Assembly: GCF_014639315.1 (NCBI RefSeq)
Contig: NZ_BMFY01000001.1
Span: 124,001 to 188,000, forward strand
DNA from: Sediminivirga luteola
GTDB taxonomy: Bacteria; Actinomycetota; Actinomycetes; Actinomycetales; Brevibacteriaceae
Length of the DNA stretch: 64,000 nt
Reading direction: 5' to 3'
The position numbers and the translations under genes were made by a program. Position 1 is the first letter of the stretch, and the number at the start of each line of letters is the position of its first letter. Positions 18,959 to 35,533 of this stretch are shown here, in pieces. The notes under the pieces were generated by a model that saw only the letters and a program-made list of their open reading frames with translations, was not told where the DNA came from and did no database searches.

Positions 18959-19032
18959 GGTGGCTATAGCTCAGTTGGTAGAGCACCGCGTTGTGGTCGC
19001 GGGGGCCGCGGGTTCAAGTCCCGTTAGCCACC
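18959..19032 (+). tRNA. tRNA-His (GUG)
   Basis: Closely matches the canonical bacterial histidine tRNA. The extra 5' G (18959) pairs with C73, acceptor arms are GTGGCTA/TAGCCAC, the anticodon loop TTGTGGT gives GUG, and the T-arm is 'GCGGGTTCAAGTCCCGT'. CCA is not encoded (CCG follows). It stands at the left edge of a lower-GC catabolic region. Confidence 0.95.
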
Positions 19033-19038
19033 CCGATG

Positions 19039-19181: not shown

Positions 19182-20414
19182 ATGGTGGCGGACCAGGCCG
19201 CGCACTTCCTCGAAGCCGGACTCAACGAACGGACGCGAATTCAGTCCACTTTGGACTACCTCGCGGAGAAGCTGGCTGGTTCGGTATACGTCGAGGACAC
19301 ACAGGGGCGCTTGCTCTATACGAGTGCGGAGGCGCCTCCTGACAGCTGGCGCGCGGACTTCACCCCTTTCGCCGCGACCGAGCATCCGCGCCGGGAGAAA
19401 CTGCTGGCCGAATGGAAATCTTCGGTCGGCCTCTACCGGGCGCGCACCGTGGACCTGAGCCTCAAGGAGTACCGTGTCCTCCTCGCGCTGACGTACCAGG
19501 GCGATCTCTTCGCTTTCGTTCACATCGTGTCGTCTATGCCGGAGTTGGTGCCCCTTGCCACTGACCCGCACTCGGTGAAAATCATCGGCGACAAGCTCTA
19601 CATCGTCATCATGGGTACGATGAATGCGCTACGCCGGAAGTACCTGACTCCCGACGATCCTGCGGAGAAGGTGCGCGCCTGGCCCGAGCATTCCGACGAT
19701 GCCGAGGCACACTATCAAGCCGCGGTGGTCCACTTCGGGCAGATCAGTTCTTCCGATGTTCAGCAGTCGATCATCGATTACGCCAGTATCGCGGCGTACC
19801 ACACACTTGAACTGCTGGGGCATCTTCGTGACTCCTGGTCTCATGACCATTGGCAAGAACCGCATATCCTGCCGAACGACGGCAATGTTCTGCGGTGCGC
19901 CATCGTCTTCGAACACGTCGGAGCCGGTGCTCCACCAGGCTGGATCGAGAGCCGGTTCCGCAGGGCGCTGGAGGCCGAAAGCTGGCGGGCCACCGTCGGA
20001 ATCAGCCCACCGTTCACGCATGCCGAGGAAGCGCAGGAGAAGGTCCAGCAGGCAGATGAGATCCGGGGGCTGGCATGGAAGCAGCAGATCGAGGGCCGCG
20101 TCTACACTCAACGGGACATCGGCGTTGAAGCCTTTCTTTTCCCGCTGACTCGTTCGGCGGAACTGCGGAAGTATGCCGCTGGCCTGGTCAACACGCTCCG
20201 CCGGAAAGACCACACGCTGTTGGAGACACTTCAGGTCTACATCGCGCTGGACTGCAACGCCACCCGTACCGCTGACCACTTTCAGGTCGACCGCCGGACC
20301 GTCACCTATCGCCTGGGCAGGATCTCAGAAACGCTTGGAGTCGATCTCGCCGCCTTCGAGACCAAGGTGCTCCTGTACCTGGCACTCAAAGCAACGGAGT
20401 CGATGCGTCCCTGA
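19182..20414 (+). CDS. PucR-family transcriptional regulator
   Basis: 410 residues from ATG 19182, with AAGGGG about 8 bases upstream. The C-terminus has the PucR-type helix-turn-helix 'LDCNATRTADHFQVDRRTVTYRLGRI'. The middle part is a GGDEF-like/CdaR sensor region, and the N-terminus has no recognised family. PucR-type proteins usually activate catabolic operons in response to their substrate. This gene stands just upstream of, and on the same strand as, the racemase-OPT-DUF917 operon, separated by a 181-base gap containing a palindrome, so it is very likely that operon's regulator. The DNA here is less GC-rich than in the tRNA segment. Confidence 0.85.
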   Translation: MVADQAAHFLEAGLNERTRIQSTLDYLAEKLAGSVYVEDTQGRLLYTSAEAPPDSWRADFTPFAATEHPRREKLLAEWKSSVGLYRARTVDLSLKEYRVLLALTYQGDLFAFVHIVSSMPELVPLATDPHSVKIIGDKLYIVIMGTMNALRRKYLTPDDPAEKVRAWPEHSDDAEAHYQAAVVHFGQISSSDVQQSIIDYASIAAYHTLELLGHLRDSWSHDHWQEPHILPNDGNVLRCAIVFEHVGAGAPPGWIESRFRRALEAESWRATVGISPPFTHAEEAQEKVQQADEIRGLAWKQQIEGRVYTQRDIGVEAFLFPLTRSAELRKYAAGLVNTLRRKDHTLLETLQVYIALDCNATRTADHFQVDRRTVTYRLGRISETLGVDLAAFETKVLLYLALKATESMRP

Positions 20415-20469
20415 AACGCGCACGAAACATGATTTCTCACCTGGGAATCGTCGAGCGGAAAATCCTGCA

Positions 20470-20487
20470 TGTTCCGTGCATGGAACA
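20470..20487. promoter_or_regulatory. Palindrome upstream of the OPT operon, putative PucR site
   Basis: TGTTCCGTGCATGGAACA has perfect 6-base arms with a nearly symmetric centre. It lies between pucR and the operon, 126 bases before the first start. TTGACG at 20509 is a possible -35, but no convincing -10 follows. Confidence 0.45.
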
Positions 20488-20595
20488 CACGATCTGTTCT
20501 GGATAGCGTTGACGTACTAACGCCGGAATGTTGTCTGCAGCACACTCCTGTGCCGCGACTTGAATCATTCCTCCCGGAACGAAGAGGTCTTATCG

Positions 20596-21237
20596 ATGCT
20601 GGGCATCATCCGTGTCCTCACCACAGAGGACGAGTCTGTGCTCCAGGAGCACGGCCGTCTTATGAAGGACGAGTCCTCCGTGGACTCACTGACCAGATGT
20701 ATTCCGGACCAGCCGTTCGGGATCTACGATGCGGTCACGGAAGCCCAGGCCGTACCGAAGATCGTCGAACTGGCCCGCACCCTCGAAGCTGACGAGCGCA
20801 TCGACGCGATTTCCATCAACTGCGCAGCGGACCCTGCTCTGGAGGAGACGCGTCAAGCAGTGTCTCTGCCTGTGATCGGCGCCGGCGTCAGCGGCGCCTA
20901 TGCGGCACGGATGATTTCGAGTTCCGTCGCAGTCCTGGGCATCACTGAAACCGTCCCGGATCAGATGAGAATCGCCCTGGGTCCGGCGCTCCACTCCGTG
21001 CGTTTTCACCCGCTTTACCGTAAAGCGACCGATCTGCATGCGGACGGAGCCCGGAAAGCATTGCTGGAATGTGCGCAAGAAGCGGAGGGAGAGGGCGCCA
21101 CCGCAATACTCTTTGCCTGCACCGGGTTTTCTACGATTCATTTGAAATCGTATTTCGACTCTCACCTGACGATCCCCTCGATTGATCTCGTCCGGGCTCA
21201 GGCCATCGCTTACACACTCCTAGCCGTAGAGGGATAG
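20596..21237 (+). CDS. Aspartate/glutamate/hydantoin racemase family protein
   Basis: 213 residues from ATG 20596 (GAAGAGG 8 bases upstream). Both cysteines of the cofactor-independent two-base racemase mechanism are visible: 'SINCAADP' (about 75) and 'LFACTGFST' (about 175). The closest fit is the hydantoin racemase/AroM-like branch rather than MurI. It opens the operon with the OPT transporter, 2 bases upstream of that gene. It may epimerise an amino acid or hydantoin-like intermediate so that downstream enzymes can use either enantiomer (inference). Confidence 0.8.
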   Translation: MLGIIRVLTTEDESVLQEHGRLMKDESSVDSLTRCIPDQPFGIYDAVTEAQAVPKIVELARTLEADERIDAISINCAADPALEETRQAVSLPVIGAGVSGAYAARMISSSVAVLGITETVPDQMRIALGPALHSVRFHPLYRKATDLHADGARKALLECAQEAEGEGATAILFACTGFSTIHLKSYFDSHLTIPSIDLVRAQAIAYTLLAVEG

Positions 21238-21239
21238 CC

Positions 21240-22898
21240 ATGTCGCAGGAGACAACACAGACAAGCACGACCACGGTTCCGCAGAAGTCGTTCAACTTCA
21301 CGTTCGTCGTCGTCTCGGCCGGCGTGGCGGTCCTGGGATCGATCATCGGGATCCAGCTCATCACCTCGTTGGGCATCACGCCGAACACATCGATCATCGG
21401 TGTACTGATCGCGATCATCATCGCGCGAATCCCGATTCGCTGGTTCCTGCAGTTCCGGAACATCCATAACCAGAACCTGATCCAGACCACGATCTCTGCG
21501 GCGACGTTCGGTGCTGCCAATAGCCTGATGATTCCCATCGGCATTCCCTATGTCCTGGGAATGCCCGAGCTGGTGTGGCCGATGCTCTTCGGTGCCGGCT
21601 TTGCCCTGGCGGTCGACGTCTTCGTGCTTTACAAGCTCTTCGACTCCAAGCTGTTCGGATCGAACGAAGCGTGGCCCGTCGGTGTCGCCTCCGCCGAAGC
21701 GCTGCGAGCTGGGGACCAGGGCGGTAAGAAGGCGAAGTTGCTCGGCTTGGGCATCCTCGGAGGGGCGGCAGGGGCACACTTCGGGGTCTCGATGTCCGCA
21801 TTCGGGGTCGCCTTCATCGGCAATATCTGGGCGCTCGGCTTCTTCGGGGTGGGCCTCCTGTCGCGGGCATACTCCGACCCTCTGTTCGGCGTCGACCTCG
21901 ACGCCCTCTACGTGCCGCACGGCATGATGGTCGGTGCCGGTGTGGTCGCCCTCGGTCAGTTCGTCTTCATTCTGATCAAGTCCCGGCGCAAGGCAAAGGT
22001 CGAAAAAGCCGCGGAGCCATCACCGCAGGCTTCCCCCGCCGAAGTAAATCCCGGACCGTCGGCTGAAGTGGACCATCAGTACACCCGGAATGACCGGGAC
22101 ATCCGCAACGCCTTCATGGTGGGCGGAGGGCTCTACCTTTCGGGCTCCCTGATGATGGCTCTGATCGGCGGTCTCATCACGGACCTTTCTATCGGGCAGC
22201 TGCTGCTCTTCATGGCGTTCGCAGCTGCAGCCACTTTTGCCACGGAGATCATCGTTGGCATCGCGGCGATGCATTCGGGGTGGTTTCCTGCTTTCGCGGT
22301 CACTCTCATCATGCTCATCGTCGGAATTCTCCTGGGCTTCCCGCCGGTCGCCCTGGCGTTGCTCACAGGCTACGTGGCCGCGACCGGGCCGGCGTTCGCC
22401 GACATGGGGTACGACCTGAAGACCGGCAGGCTCATCCGCGAGGGAATGAGCGTCCAGCAGGAACTCTTCGGTCGCCGCCAGCAGCTCAAGGCCGGCATCA
22501 TCGGTTTCACGGTCGCTTTCGTCGTCGTCATGCTCGCCCATGACAGCTACTTCTCCCAGGACCTCTTCGCTCCGGTGAACCACGTCTACGCGGCGACCAT
22601 CGAATCGGGTATCAGCGGCGAGGTCGGCGTACTCCTGCTGCTGTGGGCCATCCCCGGTGCCCTGGTCCAGCTCCTGGGCGGACCGAAGCGCCAGATCGGC
22701 GTCATGTTCGCCACCGGTCTCCTGATCCTCAACCCTCTGGCCGGCTGGGCTGTGATCGCGGGGATCACGCTCCGTTTCATCATCCTGCGCCTGCGTGGCG
22801 AGGAGTCCCAGAACACGATGTACACGGTCGCGGCGGGCTTCATCGCCGGTGACGCGCTCTACAGCTTCTTCAGTTCACTTTGGAAGGCACGTGCATGA
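21240..22898 (+). CDS. OPT-family oligopeptide transporter
   Basis: 552-residue integral membrane protein with about a dozen hydrophobic segments. OPT hallmarks include 'NIHNQNLIQTTISAATFGAANSLMIPIGIPYVLG' (positions about 78-111), 'EAWPVGVASAEALRAG' (about 142) and a long cytoplasmic loop near residues 245-285. OPT proteins import peptides or peptide-like metal chelates with protons. Here the transporter sits among hydrolases and a racemase, so it probably brings in the pathway substrate. Its stop overlaps the next start (ATGA). Confidence 0.88.
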   Translation: MSQETTQTSTTTVPQKSFNFTFVVVSAGVAVLGSIIGIQLITSLGITPNTSIIGVLIAIIIARIPIRWFLQFRNIHNQNLIQTTISAATFGAANSLMIPIGIPYVLGMPELVWPMLFGAGFALAVDVFVLYKLFDSKLFGSNEAWPVGVASAEALRAGDQGGKKAKLLGLGILGGAAGAHFGVSMSAFGVAFIGNIWALGFFGVGLLSRAYSDPLFGVDLDALYVPHGMMVGAGVVALGQFVFILIKSRRKAKVEKAAEPSPQASPAEVNPGPSAEVDHQYTRNDRDIRNAFMVGGGLYLSGSLMMALIGGLITDLSIGQLLLFMAFAAAATFATEIIVGIAAMHSGWFPAFAVTLIMLIVGILLGFPPVALALLTGYVAATGPAFADMGYDLKTGRLIREGMSVQQELFGRRQQLKAGIIGFTVAFVVVMLAHDSYFSQDLFAPVNHVYAATIESGISGEVGVLLLLWAIPGALVQLLGGPKRQIGVMFATGLLILNPLAGWAVIAGITLRFIILRLRGEESQNTMYTVAAGFIAGDALYSFFSSLWKARA

Positions 22899-23971
22899 CA
22901 CAACGGAGACTTACCCACGACGACGGCGTCGCGGCCATCTACGGCGGATGCATCCTCGGCGGCGGAGGCGGTGGCCTCATCGCGGAGGGTGAGGCCAAGG
23001 TGCGGGATTTGTTCGAACGGTCCGAGGGACCGACTTTGATCAGCCTCGACGAACTGGATGACGACCAGACGGTGGCGTGCGTGGCGCTGGTAGGGGCTCC
23101 TTCGGCGCAAGACGCTTTTCTCACCGCTGATCAGATGGTCGAGGCGGTCGAACTGGTCCAGCAGCATGCCGACAGCGGGCTCAGCGCGCTGATGACCAAC
23201 GAGAACGGCGCGGCGACGACGATCAACGGCTGGTTGCAGGCGGCTGCCCTGGGACTTCCGGTGGTGGACAGCCCTGCGAACGGCCGTGCGCATCCGACCG
23301 GGTCGATGGGTGCGCTGAGTCTTCATGCACGGACTGGATACCGCTCGTTGCAAGGCTTCAGCGGCGGCAGTGGCACCAGACGCTTTGCCGGAACGATCGC
23401 CGGGACGCTCAGCGAGGCGTCCGATGTGGTTCGTCAGGTTTCGGTCTACGCCGGTGGGCTCGTCAGCGTGTGCCGCAACCCGGTCGAGGTGGCGTACATC
23501 CGCCAGCATGCTGCGCTGGGCGGAGTCTCTCAGGCGATTGAGCTGGGCAAAGTCTTCCTCGGCGCCGAGCAGGGTCAGGCGCGGGTCGATGCCGTCGTCG
23601 GGCATCTGGGCGCTGAGCGGCTGGCCGAGGGTCCGGTGAGTGAAGTCCAGATCGTGCAACGCGGCGGTTTCGACGTCGGCCTCGTCCGCGTCGACGGCGT
23701 TGAGCTGACGTTCTGGAACGAGTACATGACCGCCGAGTGCGGGCAGGAACGTATCGGCACCTTCCCGGAGCTTCTCATGACATTGGATGCGCGCACCGGG
23801 GCGCCGGTCGTCACCGCCGAGATCCAGGAACAGCAGCACGTTGTTGTGATCAAAGTTGCCGTGGACCGGCTGCTTTTGGGAAGCACCATGCGTGACGCGT
23901 CGCTGCTCGCCGGAATCGAACCCATCGTGAACAAGAAGATCATCGAACACCAGGAGGCTCTGTGGCGCTGA
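22895..23971 (+). CDS. DUF917 / S-methyl-thiohydantoin desulfurase-like protein
   Basis: 358 residues from ATG 22895, which overlaps the OPT stop. The N-terminal 'GGCILGGGGGGL' glycine run and 'ENGAATTINGWLQAAALGLPVVD' are typical of the DUF917 (COG3535) family, related to hydantoinase subunits and now named after a thiohydantoin desulfurase. No metal-binding histidine cluster is evident. With a hydantoin-racemase-like protein, AroM and DUF1177 in the same operon it suggests catabolism of a cyclic peptide-like ring, but the reaction is unknown. Confidence 0.82.
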   Translation: MTQRRLTHDDGVAAIYGGCILGGGGGGLIAEGEAKVRDLFERSEGPTLISLDELDDDQTVACVALVGAPSAQDAFLTADQMVEAVELVQQHADSGLSALMTNENGAATTINGWLQAAALGLPVVDSPANGRAHPTGSMGALSLHARTGYRSLQGFSGGSGTRRFAGTIAGTLSEASDVVRQVSVYAGGLVSVCRNPVEVAYIRQHAALGGVSQAIELGKVFLGAEQGQARVDAVVGHLGAERLAEGPVSEVQIVQRGGFDVGLVRVDGVELTFWNEYMTAECGQERIGTFPELLMTLDARTGAPVVTAEIQEQQHVVVIKVAVDRLLLGSTMRDASLLAGIEPIVNKKIIEHQEALWR

Positions 23972-24900
23972 AGGAAGTTCTGGAGGTCGTCGACCTGTTC
24001 GACGACGCGAAAGTGAGCGGCGAGCAGGTGGTGCAGTTGCTCGCCGCCTACCCCGGAGTCACGGTCTCGACACAGCGTGTCACTACGGCGAAGGGCGGCA
24101 CGGATTTCGTCCGTATCGATATCCCCGGAGCGGCGGGAAAGAGCACCGGCGGACAGGCCAGGACTCTCGGCGTGATCGGCCGACTCGGCGGCATCGGCGC
24201 GCGGCCGGATCGCATCGGGTTGGTCTCTGACGGCGACGGCGCCGTCGCGGCCGTGGCCACAGCACTCAAGCTGGCGCGGATGCACGAGCGGGGTGACCAG
24301 CTCACCGGTGACGTGCTCATCGCGACCCACATCTGTCCCGACGCCCCTACCCTGCCGCATGAGCCGGTGGAGTTCATGGACTCGCCGGTGGACATCGCCA
24401 CCATGAACGCCCATGAGGTGATCCCGGAGATGGACGCGATCCTCTCCATCGATACCACCAAGGGAAACCGGATAGTGAATCACCGGGGCGTCGCAGTTTC
24501 CGCCCCCGTGCTGGGCGGATACATCCTGCGGTTCTCGGAGGATCTCCTGCGGATACTGGAGACCGTCTCAGGGGTGCCGGCGCAGACCCTTCCCATCACC
24601 ACGCAGGACATCACGCCCTACGGGAACGGGATTCATCACATCAACAGCATCCTGCAGCCCGCCGTCACCGCCCAGGTCCCCGTCGTCGGTGTGGCCATCA
24701 CGGCGCAGAGCGTGGTCCCGGGCAGCGCAACCGGTGCCAGTCACGAGACGGACATCGCGTTGGCCGCACGATTCGCCATCGAGGTCGCCAAGGAATTCGG
24801 CATTGAGCGCGCGGCCTTCATCGACGAGGCGGAGTATGCCTCTCTGGTGGACCTGTACGGCTCGCTGGAACATCTCTACGTCCCGCCGGCCCCGGCATGA
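23962..24900 (+). CDS. DUF1177 family protein
   Basis: 312 residues starting at GTG 23962, overlapping DUF917 by 10 bases. It contains the family pattern 'GGTDFVRIDIPG', 'VSDGDGAVAAVATALKLARM', 'THICPDAPTLPHEPVEFMDSPVDIATMN' and 'SIDTTKGNRIVNHRG'. DUF1177 has no established activity. The acidic and histidine residues in the central motif could bind metal (inference), in keeping with an aminopeptidase-like fold. DUF1177 genes are often near AroM and OPT genes, as here. Confidence 0.82.
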   Translation: MALKEVLEVVDLFDDAKVSGEQVVQLLAAYPGVTVSTQRVTTAKGGTDFVRIDIPGAAGKSTGGQARTLGVIGRLGGIGARPDRIGLVSDGDGAVAAVATALKLARMHERGDQLTGDVLIATHICPDAPTLPHEPVEFMDSPVDIATMNAHEVIPEMDAILSIDTTKGNRIVNHRGVAVSAPVLGGYILRFSEDLLRILETVSGVPAQTLPITTQDITPYGNGIHHINSILQPAVTAQVPVVGVAITAQSVVPGSATGASHETDIALAARFAIEVAKEFGIERAAFIDEAEYASLVDLYGSLEHLYVPPAPA

Positions 24901-25574
24901 GCGCCCTCGGCGTCGTCACGATCGGGCAGGCCCCGAGGGAGGACATCGCCCAGTCCTTCGCGCCTCATTTCGATCGTGCCGGTATAGGGATCGTCCAGGC
25001 CGGGGCGCTCGATGGCCTGAGCGAAGACGCGATCAGGTCTACATTGGCCCCTGCCGAAGGTGAGACCACCTACATCACCAGGCTGCTTTCGGGCACCAGT
25101 GTCGAACTGGCCAAGAGGCACGTCGTCCCGCTGCTGCAGCAGCGGGTCAACGAGCTGGAGTCTCAGTGCGCAGCCGTCGTGGTCGTATGCACGGGTGATT
25201 TCCCGATGCTCACCTCTGGGTTGCCGCTGTTTTTCCCCGACCAGCTCTTGCTTCAGGCAGCGCGTGACCGTCAGCTGGACGGGAGCCTCGGACTGGTCGT
25301 GCCGCTCAGCAGGCAGACGGAAGACATCAGCGCCAAATGGGACGAGCTCGGCGTCACCATCCATACCGCCGTGGCGACGCCTTACGGAGAGGCCGATCTG
25401 GCGGCTGCGGCGGCCGTGCTGGCCGTCCACCGGCCGGAGCTGATCGTGCTGGATTGCATGGGATACACCGCGGCGCATGGACAGACGGTCCAGGAAGCCA
25501 GTGGATGTGAGGTGCTTGTGCCGCAGGAGTTCATTCCGCGGTACGTCGCGCAGAAGCTCGGAGAGGCAGAATGA
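24897..25574 (+). CDS. AroM family protein
   Basis: 225 residues with the AroM family start 'LGVVTIGQAPREDIAQSF', the Cys-containing 'VVVVCTGDFP' (about residue 100) and 'LIVLDCMGYT' near the end, a pair placed like the two catalytic cysteines of Asp/Glu racemases. AroM was named for its position next to aroL in E. coli and has no proven role. Here it is coupled by 4-base overlaps to both neighbours, so it works in this catabolic operon, not in shikimate metabolism. Confidence 0.85.
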   Translation: MSALGVVTIGQAPREDIAQSFAPHFDRAGIGIVQAGALDGLSEDAIRSTLAPAEGETTYITRLLSGTSVELAKRHVVPLLQQRVNELESQCAAVVVVCTGDFPMLTSGLPLFFPDQLLLQAARDRQLDGSLGLVVPLSRQTEDISAKWDELGVTIHTAVATPYGEADLAAAAAVLAVHRPELIVLDCMGYTAAHGQTVQEASGCEVLVPQEFIPRYVAQKLGEAE

Positions 25575-26509
25575 CAACGATGCCCAGCGACCGGACACTT
25601 GAGGCGACAGTCCGGAACATCCTCGATCAGAACGTCGCGCTCGAGCCCGGCGACAGGATCCTTGTCCTCAGCGACGATTCCACCTGTGAACTGGCCACGC
25701 GATTCACCACTGCGATGCGAACTGTGCACGGGCACGCTGAGATCCACACATTCGCTGATCGGTCACGCTCAGGTGAGGAACCGCCAGAGACCGCGGTGCA
25801 CACGCTCTTGCAGTTCGATGCGGTGTTCTGCCTCACGCGGCACTCGCTCACCCATACCGCGGCGCGGAGGCAGGCGATCAACGCAGGCAAGCTGTTCATC
25901 ACCATGCCGGGTATCACAGCGCAGATGCTCACATCGGGCGCCTTGACCGCCGATTACGCCCGGGTGGAGCGGGAAACCCTGGATATGGCGGAGCGGCTGA
26001 CCCGCGCCGATGAAGTGGTCTTGAGAACCGGGAAGGATTGTGTGCTGCGCATCCCGGTCGCGGGCCGGGCCGGGATTGCCAGTACCGGCGTCTACCGGGG
26101 TAAGGCAACCGGAGGGAATCTCCCGAGCGGCGAGGCGTATCTGGCGCCCCTGGAGTATCGCGCCTCCGGCACCCTGCAAGTGAACGGTTCCATTGCCGGG
26201 ATCGGACTGCTGCGGGAACCAGTGCTGCTGGCCATTGAGGAGGGGCGTCTCCTCTCTGCGTCCGGGAGTGCGGGTGAGCGTCTTCTCGAGCTGCTCGGTG
26301 ACGGACTCGGCCGGCAGGTCGCCGAGCTCGGGATCGGTACGAACCACAAGGCGCGGATCATCGGTGAGATCCTGGAAGATGAGAAGGCCTATGACACCGT
26401 TCATGTCGCCTTCGGCTCCAACGACACATTCGGCGGCACGCTCGCGGCAGGCGTTCACATCGATTGCGTGGTGTCCGGTCCGACGATCGAATGGGTACCG
26501 GCGCCGTGA
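25571..26509 (+). CDS. M29-like leucyl aminopeptidase family protein
   Basis: 312 residues. The C-terminal half carries the family motifs 'GNLPSGEAYLAPLEY' (Glu ligand), 'ELGIGTNHKAR' and 'HVAFGSNDTFGGTLAAGVHID' (His and Asp ligands), shared by M29 thermophilic aminopeptidases and by NicX-type dihydroxypyridine dioxygenases. A metal-dependent hydrolase acting on the imported compound or on its opened-ring dipeptide is likely. The gene overlaps aroM by 4 bases, and its stop overlaps the nitroreductase GTG. Dioxygenase activity is the alternative. Confidence 0.8.
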   Translation: MTTMPSDRTLEATVRNILDQNVALEPGDRILVLSDDSTCELATRFTTAMRTVHGHAEIHTFADRSRSGEEPPETAVHTLLQFDAVFCLTRHSLTHTAARRQAINAGKLFITMPGITAQMLTSGALTADYARVERETLDMAERLTRADEVVLRTGKDCVLRIPVAGRAGIASTGVYRGKATGGNLPSGEAYLAPLEYRASGTLQVNGSIAGIGLLREPVLLAIEEGRLLSASGSAGERLLELLGDGLGRQVAELGIGTNHKARIIGEILEDEKAYDTVHVAFGSNDTFGGTLAAGVHIDCVVSGPTIEWVPAP

Positions 26510-27513
26510 ATGACCGGTTCCCGACGCCTCTGGAACGGATGACAGCCTCATCCAGTGCATGCGATTGCGGTGTGCAGAACGGCGGGACTCACGAGCCGGG
26601 CGATGACCTGGTGATGCACGAGAGCGCCATGGTCGCAGAACGCTTCGAGAGGTTCCGCGCACCCGAGACGCCGCGCCCCGGCGTGGCATTGCCGCCTGGT
26701 AACATCGAGGCGCATTTACGGCTTGAGACTCACCGTATCGAGAAGGGCCTGAGCATCGCCGAGCCTCGTCGCCCATTCGGGCGGTTGGCACAGGAACGCC
26801 TCACATTCCTTCTCGCGCTGGCTGCCGAGCTCTCCGGTAAGGGCGATGGTTTGGTGAGCGCAGAAGACCAGGCGCGGGAGGCACTGCGGGCATTGCAGCG
26901 GTGGAATAGCGCTGACAGGGGCACGCGCGATCCCGACCTCACCCAGCCAGCTCTGTTGGCGCCCGATGATGGTCCCAGCCGGAAACGGGACGCGCTGACT
27001 GAGTTCTTCGCGCAGCGGAGTAGCGTACGGTCGTTTGACCCCGAGAAACCGGTAAGTCCGGAAGCGATCGAGCGCGCAGTCGAAGTGGCCCTGCATTCGC
27101 CATCTGTATGCAATCGGGCGGCGGGCCGGGTGCACTTCTACGAGGGGCGGGCGGCTATCGGCCCGCTTCTTGACCTGCAGCAGGGAAACCGAGGGCTGAC
27201 GGGGATCAGGCATCTGGCCGTCGCGACCGTAGAACTGAGCATGTTCGCCGGTGCGAAGGAACTCACGCAACCGTGGATCGACGGCGGGCTCTTCCTGATG
27301 AATCTGGTGTGGGGGTTCCAGTCGCAGGGCATCGGAAGCTGTCTGTTGAATTGGTCTATGCCGGACGCCGCGAGCAGGGAACTCCGGAAGGTCGCCGCGA
27401 TTCCCGAATCAGAACTCATCGTCTGCATGCTGGCGTTTGGATACGCCCAGGAGGGCACCTACGTCACGCGTTCGGCCAAACCGCCACTGGCTCACGTCAT
27501 GACGCTGCACTGA
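26506..27513 (+). CDS. Nitroreductase-family protein with N-terminal extension
   Basis: 335 residues from GTG 26506, which overlaps the preceding stop (GTGA); an ATG at 26614 is also possible. The C-terminal 180 residues are a nitroreductase fold: 'RSSVRSFDPEKPVSPEAIERAV' (FMN phosphate region), 'HSPSVCNRAAGRVHFY' and 'WGFQSQGIGSCLLNW'. The N-terminal region includes 'LRLETHRIEKGLSI', seen in larger nitroreductases linked to polysaccharide and secondary metabolism loci. FMN-dependent reduction is expected; the substrate is unknown. Last gene of the OPT operon, followed by a hairpin. Confidence 0.8.
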   Translation: MNDRFPTPLERMTASSSACDCGVQNGGTHEPGDDLVMHESAMVAERFERFRAPETPRPGVALPPGNIEAHLRLETHRIEKGLSIAEPRRPFGRLAQERLTFLLALAAELSGKGDGLVSAEDQAREALRALQRWNSADRGTRDPDLTQPALLAPDDGPSRKRDALTEFFAQRSSVRSFDPEKPVSPEAIERAVEVALHSPSVCNRAAGRVHFYEGRAAIGPLLDLQQGNRGLTGIRHLAVATVELSMFAGAKELTQPWIDGGLFLMNLVWGFQSQGIGSCLLNWSMPDAASRELRKVAAIPESELIVCMLAFGYAQEGTYVTRSAKPPLAHVMTLH

Positions 27514-27608: not shown

Positions 27609-28055
27609 CTACGCCGCCCCCAGCTCCCCGCGCCGCCATTCGGCGAAACGTCGGTCCAGGACGGCGCAGATCCGTGCGTACTTCTCCGGCGAATTCGGCT
27701 CGTGGTAGATGGTCGGGAGGCGGTCGTCGGAGAGCGCCACATAGTCGTCCAGGTAGTGCTCCTCGTAGTAGTCGCCGGCGAACGCCCTGCCGGTCTCGGA
27801 GAAGCAGTCGTCGCTGAGGGTGTCGTCACAGGTGTCACGGAGGACCTCGGCGCCGGTGAGGGTTCCTGCCCGCAGGCTGTCCGCAAGGCCGGGCTGTGAC
27901 TCGTGGACCAGTTCGCCGCCCAGGCCCCGTTCGATCGCCCAGGCCAGGAACATCCCGATGTGGGTGCGGCCGGCGTGGGTGTCGAGTTCCTCGGGGAAGT
28001 CGCTGCCAGTGTGCCAGGAGGCATCGTCGTAGGTCACTCCGTCGTGACGGCCCAT
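27609..28055 (-). CDS. Conserved hypothetical protein (DUF7832-like)
   Basis: 148 residues, acidic and soluble. 'YDDASWHTGSDFPEELDTHAGRTHIGMFLAWAI' near the N-terminus is a recurring motif of a small family of unknown function. It is followed by a variable middle and 'PEKYARICAVLDRRF' at the end. No catalytic motif can be pointed out. It lies alone on the minus strand between two catabolic operons, which suggests those operons arrived or assembled separately. It may be polymorphic-toxin immunity-like, but nothing here proves it. Confidence 0.65.
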   Translation of the reverse strand: MGRHDGVTYDDASWHTGSDFPEELDTHAGRTHIGMFLAWAIERGLGGELVHESQPGLADSLRAGTLTGAEVLRDTCDDTLSDDCFSETGRAFAGDYYEEHYLDDYVALSDDRLPTIYHEPNSPEKYARICAVLDRRFAEWRRGELGAA

Positions 28056-28256: not shown

Positions 28257-28282
28257 GTGAGTGTGGTGGGGCCCACACTCAC
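28257..28282. repeat. Inverted repeat upstream of the ABC operon
   Basis: Perfect 10-base arms GTGAGTGTGG and CCACACTCAC with a 6-base centre, ending 8 bases before the next palindrome. It could be a second operator or a hairpin in the leader region of a longer transcript. Confidence 0.5.
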
Positions 28283-28283
28283 G

Positions 28284-28302
28284 TGCTATATTGTGGAACA
28301 AT
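28284..28302 (+). promoter_or_regulatory. Extended -10 promoter overlapped by a FadR/GntR-type operator
   Basis: TGCTATATT (28284-28292) is an extended -10. Overlapping it, ATTGTGGAACAAT (28290-28302) is a perfect palindrome that fits the FCD-type GntR consensus TNGTNNNACNA. A repressor bound there would block the ABC operon. The matching regulator gene lies at the far end of the operon (35534-36235). Confidence 0.6.
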
Positions 28303-28332
28303 CTTGAAGCGAAACGTACCGATTGGGGACTC

Positions 28333-29400
28333 ATGCCGGTGAACACGGACTCTCCTGCTGCGCGTGCCACCTCGGTTGACGGCGCATCGATCAAGGTGGT
28401 GGGAGCGGTCAAACAGTACGGATCGATGCGTGCCCTCGACGAGGTCACCCTGTCGGTCCGACCCGGTGAGTTCGTCGCGCTGCTGGGACCGAGCGGCTCG
28501 GGGAAGACGACCCTGCTGATGTCACTGGCCGGGTTCGTGCAACTCGACGAGGGAGAGGTCTCCATCGGCGGGGTACCGCAGACGCGCGTACCCACCTACC
28601 GGAGAAACCTCGGCATGGTGTTCCAGAAGTACGCGCTGTTTCCTCATCTCACTGTCGAGAAGAACATCGCCTACCCCCTGCGCAACCGCAGATGGGACCG
28701 GGAGGATAAGAAGCGGGCGATCGCAGAGGTCCTTGAGCTGACTGATATGACGCATCTCGCCGGCCGGAAGGTCCATCAGCTTTCCGGCGGCCAGCAGCAG
28801 CGCGTGGCACTTGCCCGGGCCCTGGTGTACAAACCGCCGGTACTGCTGATGGACGAACCGCTGGGCGCCCTGGACCGGAAGCTGCGAGAACAGGTTCAGC
28901 TGGAGATCCGCAGGATCCACCGGGTTCTGGGAACCACCATCATCTTCGTCACGCACGATCAGGGCGAAGCGATGTCCATGGCCGACCGCATTGCCGTTAT
29001 GAACCACGGCCGGATACTCCAGATGGACGGGCCGGAGGAACTCTACAACGCCCCGAATTCCGAGTTCGTCGCCGCCTTTGTCGGGCAGATGAACTTCTTC
29101 CGCCGCGAGTCGGGCCAGGTCCGGGCTGTCGATGCGGAGGCTACCGGTGCGTCGGATCCGGCCGCCGGGGCGCAGAACTTCGGCATTCGCCCCGAACTCA
29201 TGCGCATTGGAGCCGATGACGCATCCGGCCTCCGTGGGACGGTCTCGGAGACCATTTTCGAAGGCGCGAACCGTCATGTCCTCGTCGATGTCGACGGGGT
29301 GGCGCTGCGTGTGCAGGAACCCGCCAGCAATCCGTCCCGGACGATGGGGGACCGCGTCTCCCTGACCTGGGATCGGAGATCCGAAGTCATCTTCCCGTGA
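28333..29400 (+). CDS. ABC transporter ATP-binding protein (PotA-like)
   Basis: 355 residues from ATG 28333. Walker A 'GPSGSGKTT' (about 58), Q-loop '[11 protein letters not shown]', signature '[15 protein letters not shown]' and Walker B '[13 protein letters not shown]' are all intact. The C-terminal 80 residues form a TOBE-like regulatory domain, as in PotA and other spermidine/putrescine or iron(III) importers. It energises the fused permease two genes downstream. First gene of the operon, 31 bases after the operator. Its stop overlaps a possible GTG start of the binding protein gene. Confidence 0.92.
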
Positions 29401-29435
29401 ACAGTTCCGTGAACCCGCAGCGAAGGAAAAACATC

Positions 29436-30524
29436 ATGCCCCGGACGACAAAACTGACGACGATCCTCGGCGCCTCGGCCGCCGCCACGCTCCTCGCCAC
29501 AGGATGCGGCTCCGGCGCGGGAGGCGATGCCTCGGCGCAGCTCTATGTGGCGGACGGCGGTGGTGCGTGGGGAGAAGCGCAACGCCAGGCGTTCTTCGAG
29601 CCCTTCACCGAAGAGACCGGGATCGAGATCGTGCCGGCCTCGCAAGAATCACAAACAGCCATCTACGCTGCAGCGGAGGCGGGCAATCCCGGCATGGATG
29701 TGGTGAACATCGCCGCTTCGATGTTGCCGAACTGGGAGAACGCCGAACTTCTGCAGCCGGTCTCTTCGGATGGCTGGGAGACGGTCGACACCGCGGACTT
29801 CGACCCGTTCCCGGTACTCGACCACGCTGTCCCCTCGCTCATCTACGCCACCCAGATCGCCTACCGACCGGACACCACAGGCGGCGACTTGGAAGACTGG
29901 TCGGACTTCTTCGACACCGCCGCCTATCCCGGCCAGCGTTCGATGGGAGAGGGCTCGGTGCTGGCGAACGGCGTCTTCGAGATTGCGCTTCTCGCCGACG
30001 GCGTCGCACCCGATGATTTGTATCCTATCGATTACGAGCGAGCACTCGCGAAGATGGACGACTTGCGTCCGGACATCCTGACGTTCTGGTCCTCCGGCGC
30101 CGAGTCCGCCCAGCTCCTCGCCGATCAGCAGGTCGCCGCGGTGTCGGCATGGAACGGACGCGTGAACGACCTCGCGGCGGATGACGATTCCATCGCATAC
30201 ACATGGAACCAGGCGCTGCTGCATGTCGACTACTGGGCTGTTCCCGAGGGCGCCGACAATGTCGAAGCCGCTCAGCAGTTCATCGAGTTCGCCAGCCGCC
30301 CCGATCGCCAGGCGGAGTTCGCCGGCCTCATCACCTATGCGCCGACCAACGCCGCGGCCTATGACGACATCGACGAAGACCGGCAGGCTGCGTTGCCCAC
30401 CGCGCCCGGTCATGCCGACCAGGTCGTGCCGCAGAGCACCGAGTACTGGGGCGAGGAGTCCCCTGAGGGCGGCCTCTGGTCCGAGGTCGCGATCGGTTAC
30501 TGGCAGGACTGGATCTCCGGATGA
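29436..30524 (+). CDS. ABC transporter substrate-binding lipoprotein (PotD/AfuA-like)
   Basis: 362 residues from ATG 29436 (GAAGGA about 9 bases upstream); a GTG at 29397 is in frame but would lengthen the signal peptide. Basic N-terminus, hydrophobic stretch 'ILGASAAATLLATGC' and a lipobox Cys near residue 24 predict a lipid-anchored extracellular protein. The rest is a type 2 periplasmic binding fold of the polyamine/iron group ('FEPFTEETGIEIVPAS', 'YPGQRSMGEGSVLANGVFEIALLADG'). It captures the operon's unknown substrate. A 16-base-pair hairpin follows in the gap to the permease gene. Confidence 0.9.
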   Translation: MPRTTKLTTILGASAAATLLATGCGSGAGGDASAQLYVADGGGAWGEAQRQAFFEPFTEETGIEIVPASQESQTAIYAAAEAGNPGMDVVNIAASMLPNWENAELLQPVSSDGWETVDTADFDPFPVLDHAVPSLIYATQIAYRPDTTGGDLEDWSDFFDTAAYPGQRSMGEGSVLANGVFEIALLADGVAPDDLYPIDYERALAKMDDLRPDILTFWSSGAESAQLLADQQVAAVSAWNGRVNDLAADDDSIAYTWNQALLHVDYWAVPEGADNVEAAQQFIEFASRPDRQAEFAGLITYAPTNAAAYDDIDEDRQAALPTAPGHADQVVPQSTEYWGEESPEGGLWSEVAIGYWQDWISG

Positions 30525-30573
30525 GCCGCTGACCGCTGCTCCTGCTGTATTCCCTCCAGACAGCTCCTGGCGC

Positions 30574-30613
30574 ATGCCGCTGACGGGACCGTGCACCGTC
30601 CCGTCAGCGGCAT
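30574..30613 (+). promoter_or_regulatory. Intercistronic hairpin (mRNA stabiliser or attenuator)
   Basis: Perfect 16-base arms (ATGCCGCTGACGGGAC and complement) around an 8-base loop, between the binding-protein and permease genes and 19 bases before the next ATG. Hairpins at this point often protect the upstream mRNA or cut readthrough, giving more binding protein than permease. Confidence 0.7.
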
Positions 30614-30632
30614 CCGCGGATGAAGGATTCCC

Positions 30633-32429
30633 ATGAGACTTCCGTTCCACGGCTCTGCACGGGCCGCTTCGCGCCGACGCGCCACGCCGGGTGGCGCCAA
30701 GCGGGCACCGGTCCTGGCGGCTCTGCTGATTCCGGCTGTCGTGTTCGCCGTCATCGTGTTCCTTCTGCCGCTGGTGAACATGGTGTACGGCGCGCTCTTC
30801 GCCGACGGCGGGACGAGCACGTTCTTCGCCGACGCGACGGACCCGGTCTTCGTGCGGGTCCTGTTACGGACAGCAACCATCAGCGCAATCGTGACCGTGG
30901 TCTGCCTCGTGCTCGGGTATCCGGTCGCGTACATCGCTTCGCGGCAGGGCAGCGTCGTCGGGATCATCCTGCTCGGACTCGTCTGCCTCCCGTTCTTCAC
31001 CTCGGCTCTCGTCCGCACCTACGCCTGGACCATCATCCTGGCGGACCGCGGGCCCATCAACTCCTTTCTGATCGGCATCGGCGTCATCGACGATCCCATC
31101 CGGCTCGTCTACAACGACATCGGGGTGGTCATCGGCATGTCCCAGGTGCTCCTGCCGATGATGGTCTTCCCGCTATACAACACCATGCGCGGGATCGACA
31201 GGTCCTTGCTCCAAGCTTCCCGGAGTCTCGGCAGCAACGCGGTGCAGAGCTGGGCTCGGGTCTACCTGCCGCTGTCCCGCCCGGGCATCCTTGCCGGGTC
31301 CACTCTGGTGTTCATCTCAGCGATGGGCTACTACATCACGCCGATGCTCCTCCAGGGCCCGTCTTCGCCGATGTTCGCCCAGCGGATGGACACACTGCTG
31401 GGACAGCCGGGGCAACGCGGAACAGTGGCCACCGAGTCCGTGGTGATGCTGCTCATCACCCTTGTGCTCATGGTGCTCTTCCGCAAGCAGCTGGGGCTGA
31501 CACTCGACGCGTCTGCAGGTGCCCGCCGGAAGCTCAAGCAGAAGGCGGTCACTACAAGACGCGGGGACATGGGACGGTATCTGTCCGATGGCCTGCTCTC
31601 CCGATGCGGAACCGCTGTGAGCCGGGTGCTCGAGCCGGTCAGGCTCTGGATCGCCTGGGTGTTGACCCTCACGGCGATCCTGCTGGCCCTGGCGCCGTTC
31701 ATCATCATCTCGATCCTGGCGTTCAGCCAGGACGCCTATCTCAGGTTCCCGCCGTCCGGTTATTCGACCCAGTGGATCGAGTCGTACTTCTCCTCTCCGC
31801 AGTGGCTCGCAGCCACGGAGCTGAGCGTGCGAGTCTCCATCCTCGCCGCGCTCATCGGCACCGCGATCGGTTCGCTGGCGGCGTTCGCCATCGCTCGCGG
31901 AGCAGCGGGCCGTTGGTCGCCTATGGCCTATGTTTTCCTGATCGCTCCGCTCGTGGTGCCGCAGATCGTCGTCGCGGTGGCGCTGTTGTTCAGTTTCGTC
32001 GAGGTGGATGTCCAGGGCACCGAGACCGCGGTCTTCCTCGCATATGTGCTGCTATGCCTGCCGTATGCCGTCATCGTCATGAACACGGCTTTTCAGGGAC
32101 TCGACCGCGTCTACGAGAACGCTGCTGCGAGCCTCGGGTCATCACCGTCGCGGGTGGCCTACACGGTTGTGCTGCCACTGGTCGCTCCGGCCCTTATCGC
32201 CTCGGTGATGTTCGGTTTCGTGATGGGCTTCAGCGACCTGGTGTTCGCGCAGTTCGTCGGCGGGCCGGGAGCGGAGACGCTCGAACGGCTCATGTTCAGG
32301 ACGATCAGGGAAGTCGTCAGTCCCCAGGTCGCCGCAGTCGGCTTCCTCTTCTTCGTGGCCATCCTGATCGTCGGGATCGTCGCGGTCATCGTCATGCGCC
32401 GGCGTCAGAACGTCGCCGCGTCCCTCTGA
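30633..32429 (+). CDS. ABC transporter permease, two permease domains fused
   Basis: 598 residues holding two complete BPD_transp_1 domains that are usually separate PotB- and PotC-like proteins. The first has its EAA-type loop at 'ASRSLGSNAVQSWARVYLPLSRPGI' (about residue 195); the second at 'NAAASLGSSPSRVAYTVVLPLVAPA' (about 500). Each domain has about six hydrophobic segments, separated by a basic linker near residues 290-330. The fusion fixes the permease stoichiometry at one polypeptide per transporter. Fused permeases of this kind occur among iron/thiamine/polyamine-type importers. The start has GAAGGA upstream (30622-30627). Confidence 0.9.
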   Translation: MRLPFHGSARAASRRRATPGGAKRAPVLAALLIPAVVFAVIVFLLPLVNMVYGALFADGGTSTFFADATDPVFVRVLLRTATISAIVTVVCLVLGYPVAYIASRQGSVVGIILLGLVCLPFFTSALVRTYAWTIILADRGPINSFLIGIGVIDDPIRLVYNDIGVVIGMSQVLLPMMVFPLYNTMRGIDRSLLQASRSLGSNAVQSWARVYLPLSRPGILAGSTLVFISAMGYYITPMLLQGPSSPMFAQRMDTLLGQPGQRGTVATESVVMLLITLVLMVLFRKQLGLTLDASAGARRKLKQKAVTTRRGDMGRYLSDGLLSRCGTAVSRVLEPVRLWIAWVLTLTAILLALAPFIIISILAFSQDAYLRFPPSGYSTQWIESYFSSPQWLAATELSVRVSILAALIGTAIGSLAAFAIARGAAGRWSPMAYVFLIAPLVVPQIVVAVALLFSFVEVDVQGTETAVFLAYVLLCLPYAVIVMNTAFQGLDRVYENAAASLGSSPSRVAYTVVLPLVAPALIASVMFGFVMGFSDLVFAQFVGGPGAETLERLMFRTIREVVSPQVAAVGFLFFVAILIVGIVAVIVMRRRQNVAASL

Positions 32430-32468
32430 TACCTACTCATTCCTGGAAGAAAGGACACCCACGCTCGC

Positions 32469-33587
32469 ATGTGGTTCGCACCGGAAGAATACGATGCCCG
32501 CTTGGAACGTCTGCGTGAGCGGATGCGTCACGAAGGGCTGGACTGGGTCCTGATCTTCGAACCGGAGAATCTCACTTACATCTCGGGATTCTTCACCAAC
32601 GGTTATGCCACGTCGTTCGGCTTCCTGGCGGTCCCGATGACGGGAGAGCCGGTCAACGTCGTGCGCAAGGCGGAAGCGTTCTGGTTCCGCGACTCCCGCT
32701 ATCCGGATTCCGTGGTGTGGTGGGAAGACTGGCAGACGGTGGACGAGGTCGTCCGCATGGCGCTTGCGGAAGCCGGCGTGACGGGACGGGTGGGATATGA
32801 AGGCAGTTCCTGGCGGGCGAACGCGCGTTTGATCAACGGGATGATCGCCGCGTATCCGTCGATCGACTTCGTCGATGTGGGGCTTCTGGTCACGGCGCTG
32901 CGCTTCACCAAGTCTCCGGCGGAAATCGAGTACCAGCGCAAGGCCGGAAAGATCGTCGACGCTATGTACGCTGCGGCACAGGACACCCTCCGCGCCGGGA
33001 CGAACGAACGCGACTTCGCCGCGGAAATCTCACGGGTGGCGGTTTCGGCCGGCAGCGACTGGGCCCAGCCCGGGCCGATCTCCACCGGCGAACGCGCCTT
33101 CCACATCCACGCCTCCTACGAGGACAGGGAGATCGTCCCCGGTGACAGGGCATTCCTGGAGTTCACCCCGAGGGTGCTCGGTTACCACGCTCGTGCGATG
33201 CGCACCGCCGTCATCGGAGAACCCGCCCCCGAGATTCTCAGGACCTATGACGCGATGGTCCAGATCCAGGAGAGCGCCCTGCAGCATGTCAGGGCCGGAG
33301 TCAGCTGCCGGCCGGCCGATGCGGCGTATCGCGATGGGATGCGCGAGGCAGGTATCGCGGAGAACTACATCAACAAGACCTTCTACAGCGTCGGGCTGAT
33401 GCTTCCGCCGATCAGCTGGGAGCCTCTGCAGGTGACGAGCGCCAGCGATTTCACCTTCGAGGAGGGCATGACCTTCCATACCTATCTGAGCTATGACGGA
33501 TTGAACATCTCGGACACCATCGCCATCACTGCCGATGGCTACGAGAGGCTGACCAACTACCCCCGGGAACTGATGGTGATCCCCTGA
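32469..33587 (+). CDS. Creatinase-fold (M24-like) protein lacking canonical metal ligands
   Basis: 372 residues with the two-domain creatinase/prolidase layout. N-terminal domain 'LRERMRHEGLDWVLIFEPENLTYISGF' is typical; the C-terminal 'pita-bread' part starts near residue 140. The five metal ligands of M24 peptidases do not align. The DFG position reads 'FLEFTP', the SDxTRT position reads 'HARAMRT', the HGxGH position reads 'FYSVGLM', and both Glu positions are Tyr or Ser. The 'GERAFHIHASYEDREIVPGD' stretch does match the creatinase region with its catalytic His. A metal-independent amidinohydrolase-like reaction is plausible, but creatinase's own Glu in ALERT is Met here. Substrate unknown. 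Confidence 0.8.
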   Translation: MWFAPEEYDARLERLRERMRHEGLDWVLIFEPENLTYISGFFTNGYATSFGFLAVPMTGEPVNVVRKAEAFWFRDSRYPDSVVWWEDWQTVDEVVRMALAEAGVTGRVGYEGSSWRANARLINGMIAAYPSIDFVDVGLLVTALRFTKSPAEIEYQRKAGKIVDAMYAAAQDTLRAGTNERDFAAEISRVAVSAGSDWAQPGPISTGERAFHIHASYEDREIVPGDRAFLEFTPRVLGYHARAMRTAVIGEPAPEILRTYDAMVQIQESALQHVRAGVSCRPADAAYRDGMREAGIAENYINKTFYSVGLMLPPISWEPLQVTSASDFTFEEGMTFHTYLSYDGLNISDTIAITADGYERLTNYPRELMVIP

Positions 33588-35526: not shown

Positions 35527-35533
35527 CGGGTCT

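What the first reader, a model, noticed from the sequence alone, without database searches (positions are those of the whole stretch)
20596..27513. Seven-gene operon of mostly uncharacterised families: an unnamed peptide-like or hydantoin-like catabolic pathway
Seen: seven same-strand genes with 4-10-base overlaps or tiny gaps encode an Asp/Glu (hydantoin) racemase-like protein, OPT transporter, DUF917, DUF1177, AroM, M29-type aminopeptidase and nitroreductase, behind a PucR regulator. Known: OPT imports peptides, DUF917 is tied to hydantoin/thiohydantoin chemistry, PucR regulators respond to catabolic substrates; DUF1177 and AroM have no proven reaction. Inference: the operon imports a small cyclic or modified peptide, racemises it, opens a ring and hydrolyses the product, with a reductive step by the nitroreductase. 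Two cysteine pairs (racemase and AroM) suggest two related epimerisation or lyase steps.
Basis: partly seen in the sequence, partly recalled or inferred. Interest (0 to 1): 0.75.

Follow-up and report, generated by a model that had tools for sequence, protein, structure and literature searches.

The report
Peptide-import operon explaining E. coli AroM
This is a real seven-gene operon, part of a widespread and mobile module that probably imports small peptide-like molecules, flips a stereocentre and cuts them up; comparing it across genomes suggests that the puzzling AroM protein of E. coli is a left-over of such an operon that has lost its active site and taken on another role.

Summary
Confirmed: seven collinear genes at 20596-27513 (racemase, OPT, DUF917, DUF1177, AroM, M29-like, nitroreductase) behind a PucR-type regulator, in a lower-GC stretch beside tRNA-His. 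The set recurs: of 199 Bacillota genomes 15 carry AroM, 14 of these DUF1177, 12 within 2.1 kb; DUF917-DUF1177-AroM-aminopeptidase is collinear on a haloarchaeal plasmid. Importers and peptidases are exchanged around a DUF1177-AroM core, which points to a peptide-like substrate. AroM has the Asp/Glu-racemase fold; DUF1177 a metallopeptidase-like fold without conserved HxD/EE motifs. New here: E. coli aroM occupies the spot where Pantoea and relatives carry IclR-OPT-DUF1177-aroM. Full-length AroM linked to DUF1177 keep both catalytic cysteines (113 of 113); enteric copies without OPT/DUF1177 keep them in 4 of 65, from at least two events, yet stay under purifying selection. Four non-enteric AroM not beside DUF1177 are intact. 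Substrate and reactions are inferred. A 2024 paper (PMC11055893) already linked racemase, DUF917, AroM and OPT to cyclodipeptide-oxidase clusters.

The parts
18960..19034 (+). tRNA-His (gtg), immediately upstream; left edge of a lower-GC stretch (0.60-0.67 per kb against 0.67-0.72 outside) running to about 36000
   Evidence: no second copy of its 3' end in the window within 3 mismatches
19182..20414 (+). PucR-type regulator (C-terminal HTH_30); start codon inferred
   Evidence: a homologue stands at the same place in Leucobacter L020 (36% identity)
20415..20595 (.). intergenic stretch, presumed promoter/operator of the operon
   Evidence: sequence; no sigma-70 consensus found
20596..21237 (+). 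Asp/Glu/hydantoin racemase family protein, two-cysteine (C76, C175)
   Evidence: PF01177 2e-18; PDB 2eq5 hypothetical hydantoin racemase 9.4e-39; cysteines invariant in 20 of 20
21240..22898 (+). OPT family transporter
   Evidence: PF03169 9.5e-39
22895..23971 (+). DUF917 / S-Me-THD-like protein (ring-amide hydrolase-like), below the cut-off of both characterised subfamilies
23962..24900 (+). DUF1177; predicted fold of the M17/M20/M28/M42 metallopeptidases
   Evidence: PF06675 3.2e-125; model pLDDT 85; Foldseek 3e-9, VIA Z 16.8
24897..25574 (+). AroM; Asp/Glu racemase fold, keeps all 20 signature residues including C98 and C187
   Evidence: PF07302 5.5e-60; model pLDDT 95; Foldseek; hhalign with the racemase
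25571..26509 (+). short M29-like aminopeptidase with conserved putative metal ligands (E188, E252, H278, H296, D298)
26539..27513 (+). nitroreductase-family protein with an N-terminal extension; optional member of the module
   Evidence: PF00881 2.2e-14; same position in Leucobacter L020 at 52% identity

Best explanation
The operon is one instance of a mobile, probably substrate-induced catabolic module whose core is importer + DUF1177 + AroM (often with a second racemase) + peptidase. OPT (replaced by a Dpp-type ABC importer elsewhere) brings in a small peptide or peptide-derived amide. AroM and the racemase-family protein act on an acidic alpha-proton with their two cysteines, most likely inverting a D-configured or otherwise non-standard residue. 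DUF917 (optional) opens a ring form such as a hydantoin, diketopiperazine or imide. DUF1177 and the M29-like enzyme (elsewhere S51, M20 or alpha/beta-hydrolase S33-type enzymes) hydrolyse the linear product. PucR switches the operon on with the substrate; the nitroreductase handles an optional redox variant. Shown: gene set, conserved linkage, folds, conserved catalytic cysteines, exchange of importers and peptidases, and, in Enterobacterales, erosion of AroM's active site where OPT and DUF1177 are gone. Inferred: substrate class, order of steps, each reaction.
For: Gene set and families. Linkage of AroM and DUF1177: Bacillota 14 of 15 AroM genomes among 199 (1.7 expected), nominal p 1e-14; family of the enteric query genome 18 genomes with both among 198 (AroM 79, DUF1177 21), nominal p 7e-6; both samples include the centre genome, which was known to carry DUF1177, and the Bacillota one also G403. 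Permuted gene orders with the same content. Of 80 DUF1177 loci: AroM within 6 kb in 75, OPT or Dpp importer in 69, a peptidase of a tested type in 42. Exchange of OPT and Dpp and of M29, S51, M20, S33-type enzymes. Archaeal plasmid with DUF917-DUF1177-AroM-aminopeptidase in the window's order. AroM fold, DUF1177 fold. Both cysteines kept in 113 of 113 full-length linked AroM (89, 24 more) and in 4 of 65 enteric AroM without OPT/DUF1177. In one genome (G806) the linked copy is intact and the copy at the aroL locus eroded. A paper reports racemase, DUF917, AroM, OPT and peptidase genes in cyclodipeptide-oxidase clusters (PMC11055893, passages read).
Against: No substrate, activity or transcript is known. 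DUF1177 shows no conserved HxD or EE motif in 40 sequences, so it may not be a peptidase. Outside the enterics AroM does not need DUF1177 beside it: four such copies (G257, G856, and G862 and G945, whose DUF1177 is on another contig) keep both cysteines; G856 shows no DUF1177 at all, and G257 none. One linked AroM (L071) is broken. OPT proteins also carry metal chelates (recalled). DUF917 and HyuA-type clusters near some loci keep a hydantoin reading alive. In 7 of 15 DUF1177-anchored actinobacterial loci (L011-L017) neither AroM/racemase nor an importer lies within 6 kb, and in two more (L230, L233) no racemase-fold gene does. The 80-locus panel holds the nearest relatives of the query, so its counts are inflated.
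Confidence: 0.5

Rival explanations
1. Hydantoin-type pathway: the operon degrades a hydantoin, thiohydantoin or N-carbamoyl amino acid derivative; the racemase and AroM are hydantoin racemases, DUF917 is the ring opener, and the peptidase-like proteins are decarbamoylases or deacylases.
For: The racemase is close to a hypothetical hydantoin racemase, PDB 2eq5; DUF917 relatives act on thiohydantoins (family names); HyuA-DUF917-permease clusters lie beside some modules.
Against: DUF917 is far below both thiohydantoin models and lies near only 21 of 80 DUF1177 loci; no cyclic amidohydrolase or HyuA/HyuB is in this operon; OPT and Dpp-type importers and S51/M20/M29 peptidases fit peptides better.
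Confidence: 0.25
2. Cyclic-dipeptide pathway: the module salvages diketopiperazines, some of them dehydrogenated; the nitroreductase, like cyclodipeptide oxidase elsewhere, changes the oxidation state of the ring.
For: PMC11055893 finds the same families enriched in clusters with cyclodipeptide oxidases; nitroreductase-family genes follow the module in Leucobacter and five Bacillota loci.
Against: The window's nitroreductase matched 4 PDB chains at E 0.01, none described as a cyclodipeptide oxidase (no direct comparison was made); nitroreductases of the tested subfamilies lie near 6 of 80 and 2 of 26 loci.
Confidence: 0.15
3. Chance cluster: neighbouring genes of unrelated function brought together in a horizontally acquired low-GC stretch.
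For: The stretch is lower in GC and tRNA-adjacent, and DUF1177 is in only 2 of the 10 listed genomes of the window's own family, its own included.
Against: The same set recurs in several phyla and in an archaeon, in permuted orders.
Confidence: 0.03

Closest known systems
Non-CDPS cyclodipeptide oxidase clusters (PMC11055893)
   Same: Hydantoin racemase (PF01177), DUF917, AroM and OPT genes are enriched there, with peptidase genes in many
   Different: DUF1177 is not named in that paper (0 occurrences); no cyclodipeptide oxidase was recognised in the window; in the passages read the paper does not discuss the history of the E. coli aroM locus
E. coli aroL-yaiA-aroM locus
   Same: aroM stands where Pantoea and relatives carry IclR-OPT-DUF1177-aroM between yaiA and ppnP
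   Different: OPT and DUF1177 are absent; AroM lost C98 and most other signature residues
Thiohydantoin and S-methyl-thiohydantoin desulfurases (NCBIfam NF058529, NF058532)
   Same: Homologous over nearly the whole DUF917 protein
   Different: 254.2 and 237.9 bits against cut-offs of 440 and 450
M17/M20/M28/M42 metallopeptidases
   Same: The DUF1177 model has their fold (best Z 16.8, 234 residues, 3.6 A)
   Different: No credible match in the PDB sequence search; HxD and EE motifs not conserved in DUF1177
Glutamate/aspartate racemase, arylmalonate decarboxylase and maleate isomerase superfamily
   Same: AroM fold and two cysteine motifs
   Different: AroM is a Pfam family of its own with its own invariant motifs (TIGQxPR, GxLD)

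Membership tests
Asp/Glu racemase superfamily (AroM) | Fold | tested here: met
   Foldseek: arylmalonate decarboxylase, MurI, aspartate racemase, maleate isomerase lead the list, best E 1.8e-6; a few unrelated Rossmann-like chains also pass 1e-3 with low TM. hhalign with the racemase alignment 95%
Asp/Glu racemase superfamily (AroM) | Two catalytic cysteines | tested here: met
   C98 and C187 in the window protein and in 113 of 113 full-length linked AroM; their catalytic role is recalled from the superfamily
Asp/Glu racemase superfamily (AroM) | Racemase or lyase activity | not testable with these tools
   needs an enzyme assay
Thiohydantoin / S-methyl-thiohydantoin desulfurase (DUF917) | NCBIfam equivalog score | tested here: not met
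   254.2 of 440 and 237.9 of 450 bits
S-Me-THD-like superfamily (DUF917) | Both Pfam domains over cut-off | tested here: met
   PF06032 86.6 bits, PF20906 81.3 bits, cut-offs 27
Clan MH-type metallopeptidases (DUF1177; clan name recalled) | Fold | tested here: met
Clan MH-type metallopeptidases (DUF1177; clan name recalled) | Conserved metal/catalytic motifs (HxD, EE; recalled) | tested here: inconclusive
   No conserved HxD or EE among 40 sequences; other invariant D and H residues could bind metal; hhalign with M20 gave 1.2% probability
Peptidase M29 | Pfam cut-off and metal ligands | tested here: met
   29.7 bits against 27; E188 aligns with residue 250 of AmpT 2ayi (weak match, E 0.028); E188, E252, H278, H296, D298 invariant in 17; that these are the ligands is recalled
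Cyclodipeptide oxidase (nitroreductase) | Sequence similarity to known oxidases | tested here: inconclusive
   none described as such among 4 PDB chains at E 0.01; no direct comparison was made
Classical hydantoin-utilisation operon (recalled) | Hydantoinase plus carbamoylase genes | tested here: not met
   no cyclic amidohydrolase, HyuA/HyuB or carbamoylase family among the operon's proteins

The most novel reading that the evidence does not exclude
DUF1177 and AroM are the core of an undescribed catabolic pathway, shared by Bacteria and Archaea and spread on plasmids, that epimerises and hydrolyses damaged, D-residue or cyclised small peptides. E. coli AroM, the namesake of the family, is a former enzyme of that pathway that lost its partners and its active site and was repurposed in the aroL operon.
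Probability: 0.35. Interest if true: 0.8.

Novelty: new variant of a known kind. Interest (0 to 1): 0.6.

Why it matters
It gives three poorly characterised families (DUF1177, AroM, this DUF917 branch) a shared context and a testable role. It also offers an explanation for a gene of unknown function in E. coli K-12: aroM sits in the aroL operon apparently because the rest of a catabolic operon was lost around it. E. coli AroM is then the wrong protein in which to look for the family's activity, and the linked AroM proteins are the right ones. In enterics the erosion of AroM's active site after loss of OPT and DUF1177 is genetic evidence that the three worked together there; the few unlinked but intact AroM in other phyla show that this dependence is not universal.

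Tried and rejected
Rejected: DUF917 as a thiohydantoin desulfurase (scores far below cut-off). Rejected: chance clustering. Tried without result: PDB sequence search with AroM alone (5 unrelated chains) and with the DUF1177 profile (4 chance-level matches); hhalign of DUF1177 with M20 peptidases (1.2% probability); a direct repeat of the tRNA-His end as an island boundary; promoter scan. Literature: searches of the open-licence library (listings only, apart from passages of PMC11055893) showed no paper on a DUF1177 function and none that treats E. coli aroM as a relic; subscription papers are not held, so this is not proof of absence.

Limits on counts. The 80 loci are the best of 575 confirmed in a list cut at 600 candidates. 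Eleven of the 26 loci of panel B were fetched around AroM hits, so their AroM counts are not independent. Two weak AroM matches (G884, G920) were dropped from the Bacillota count, as were G142 and G021 from the Actinomycetota count. The Bacillota sample includes its centre G397 and G403, the enteric sample its centre G396, all known beforehand to carry DUF1177; without G397 the Bacillota figures are 13 of 14 and 11 within 2.1 kb. Genomes are related, so p-values are nominal. The Actinomycetota counts (AroM 4, DUF1177 9, both 2 of 396; p 0.003) include the window's own genome. Gene partners were sought by BLAST with chosen representatives, so other subfamilies of peptidase, importer or nitroreductase may be missed. 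The first set of 89 linked AroM left out loci where my gene caller did not pick a full AroM frame (L041, L070, L071, L072) and the later samples; one search read these: 24 more full-length linked AroM all keep both cysteines (21 of 24 all 20 signature residues), L071 is broken, and the AroM of G212 is cut off by its contig end. G672, whose AroM and DUF1177 are in fragments, was left out of the signature count. The tree needs at least two changes of state, so the contrast between linked and orphan copies rests on few events. One linked copy (L238, G694) whose DUF1177 is broken by a stop has lost two signature residues but keeps both cysteines.

Full report
OBSERVATION. The seven genes and their regulator are in place. 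Pfam gives Asp/Glu racemase, OPT, S-Me-THD (DUF917), DUF1177, AroM, M29 and nitroreductase; the regulator has a PucR-type HTH. The first six genes overlap by 4-10 bases or lie 2 bases apart; the nitroreductase follows after 29 bases if its first ATG is used. The stretch from tRNA-His (18960-19034) to about 36 kb has lower GC than its flanks. DUF1177 matches 9 of 139 genomes of the window's order (one of the nine only a fragment below the cut-off) and 2 of the 10 listed genomes of its own family, the window's included, so the operon was probably acquired.

HOW WIDESPREAD IS THE SET? A DUF1177 profile search brought 80 loci from Enterobacterales, Bacillota, Burkholderiales and other Pseudomonadota, Chloroflexota, Actinomycetota and one archaeal MAG. 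AroM lies within 6 kb in 75 of 80, an OPT or Dpp-type importer in 69, a second racemase in 29, DUF917 in 21, a peptidase of a tested type in 42, a nitroreductase of a tested subfamily in 6. Without the 28 enteric loci at the aroL position the figures are 48, 41, 29, 21, 42 and 6 of 52. Leucobacter chinensis (L020) has the window's whole order PucR-racemase-OPT-DUF917-DUF1177-AroM-M29-nitroreductase. These 80 are the nearest relatives of the query, so whole-genome samples were searched too. In 199 Bacillota genomes AroM (over 100 bits) is in 15, DUF1177 in 23, both in 14, 12 of them within 2.1 kb. In 198 genomes of the family of the enteric query genome the figures are 79, 21 and 18. In 396 Actinomycetota genomes they are 4, 9 and 2, the window's own genome included. 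The first two samples contain their centre genome, known to carry DUF1177. Loci read from these samples show the same members in permuted orders. Against the trend, in the actinobacterial group L011-L017 DUF1177 stands with M29 and DUF917 but with neither AroM/racemase nor an importer within 6 kb.

MOBILITY. Seven of 72,556 plasmid records carry DUF1177; four were read. A haloarchaeal plasmid has an ABC importer, then DUF917-DUF1177-AroM-aminopeptidase in the window's order, then a racemase and an aspartoacylase-family gene. A conjugative enterobacterial plasmid has IclR-OPT-DUF1177-AroM-PepE-racemase between transposase genes. A Paenibacillus plasmid has an ABC importer, a deacylase, DUF1177 and AroM. 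A Planococcus plasmid has DUF1177 with hydantoinase-family and DUF917 genes but no listed AroM.

FOLDS AND ACTIVE SITES. AroM models as an Asp/Glu-racemase-type protein (pLDDT 95), and its profile aligns with the operon's other racemase. DUF1177 models with pLDDT 85 and matches M17/M20/M28/M42 metallopeptidases (best Z 16.8 over 234 residues, 3.6 A). In 40 sequences it has many invariant residues (D90, H123, C125, D164, D216, H226, H261 among them) but no conserved HxD or EE pair, the classical motifs as I recall them. It is either a metallopeptidase with a changed site or another enzyme on that fold. The M29-like protein is short but keeps five putative metal ligands in 17 of 17 sequences (ligand roles recalled).

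PEPTIDASE AND IMPORTER EXCHANGE. In Pseudomonadota the module often carries Peptidase S51; in Paenibacillus an M20-type deacylase and a Dpp-type importer; in the window's order S51, alpha/beta hydrolases with an S33-type match, and longer proteins with 23-24% identity to the M29-like one but no Pfam match in the one scanned. Different importers and peptidases around the same DUF1177-AroM core are best explained by a peptide-like substrate.

E. COLI AROM. In E. coli K-12 the order is proC-yaiI-aroL-yaiA-aroM-ppnP-rdgC-mak. In 28 loci of Pantoea, Erwinia, Serratia, Rahnella, Hafnia and relatives OPT-DUF1177 stands between the aroL/yaiA side and aroM-ppnP-rdgC (L048 lacks aroM, the contig of L049 starts after aroL, a few lack a detected yaiA), each with a gene of the IclR cluster before OPT (two members of that cluster confirmed by Pfam). 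aroM is in 5375 of 5426 E. coli genomes; DUF1177 DNA of a Pantoea-like record (L018) finds no match in them at the sensitivity of that search. AroM linked to DUF1177 keeps all 20 signature residues in 85 of 89 and both cysteines in 89 of 89; enteric copies without OPT/DUF1177 beside them 0 of 65 and 4 of 65. Reading the linked copies first left out gave 24 more full-length ones, 24 with both cysteines and 21 with all 20 residues, and one broken copy, L071. One genome (G806) holds an intact linked copy and an eroded copy at the aroL locus. In the tree of 67 rows the E. coli-type orphans form one fully supported group on a long stem, and the starred group that holds them also holds 24 linked enteric copies; with 115 rows at least two changes of state are needed. 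The 20 orphans tested are under purifying selection (median dN/dS 0.10 in 42 pairs, against 0.19 in 194 pairs of 22 linked ones), so they are not decaying pseudogenes. The reading is loss of OPT and DUF1177, loss of AroM's enzymatic site, and a new role for the protein. A gain of OPT-DUF1177 next to a pre-existing AroM was not formally tested; it is less likely because the linked form is shared with other phyla.

A QUALIFICATION. Outside the enterics four AroM without DUF1177 beside them keep both cysteines: G257 (with IclR, OPT and DUF917), G945 (with DUF917 and a deacylase), G862 and G856. G862 and G945 have DUF1177 on other contigs. So AroM can stay intact without a DUF1177 neighbour, perhaps in a variant pathway; erosion is shown for the aroL-locus copies only.

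PRIOR WORK. One paper (PMC11055893; passages read) reports hydantoin racemases, DUF917, AroM and OPT enriched in clusters with cyclodipeptide oxidases, with peptidase genes in many, and suggests hydantoinase-like and racemase-like roles. It does not name DUF1177. Searches (listings only) showed no functional paper on DUF1177 or E. coli aroM in the open-licence library.

VERDICT. The operon is real and its members belong together. The pathway, most likely import, epimerisation and hydrolysis of a peptide-like compound, is inferred. The most solid new result is the contrast between linked and aroL-locus AroM in enterics, which gives E. coli aroM an origin.

Noticed in passing
window 28261-36235: A second catabolic set follows in the same low-GC stretch: ABC importer with a spermidine/putrescine-like (SBP_bac_8) binding protein, M24 peptidase, Peptidase C26 (glutamine-amidotransferase type), M20 peptidase and a GntR/FCD regulator on the other strand.
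   Followed up: partly
window 27609-28055, minus strand: A DUF7832 protein (PF25191, 6.2e-35) lies between the two catabolic sets.
   Followed up: no
L020 284-13800: Leucobacter chinensis carries two modules in tandem: M20-type gene, DUF1177, ABC ATPases, AroM, then PucR-racemase-OPT-DUF917-DUF1177-AroM-M29-nitroreductase.
   Followed up: partly
L018, L078: Record titles look doubtful: the AroM of 'Enterobacter cancerogenus M004' is almost identical to Pantoea/Erwinia ones, and that of 'Roseburia sp. 1XD42-34' groups with Bacillaceae.
   Followed up: no
L071, L078, L283: A separate HyuA-DUF917-cytosine permease cluster lies beside some DUF1177 loci; L071 and L078 also have a carbon-nitrogen-hydrolase cluster gene.
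   Followed up: no
L219 (G945, 7.4-kb contig): AroM and DUF917 lie with an AstE/AspA-type deacylase and a dicarboxylate-type carrier; no DUF1177 or OPT on this contig.
   Followed up: no
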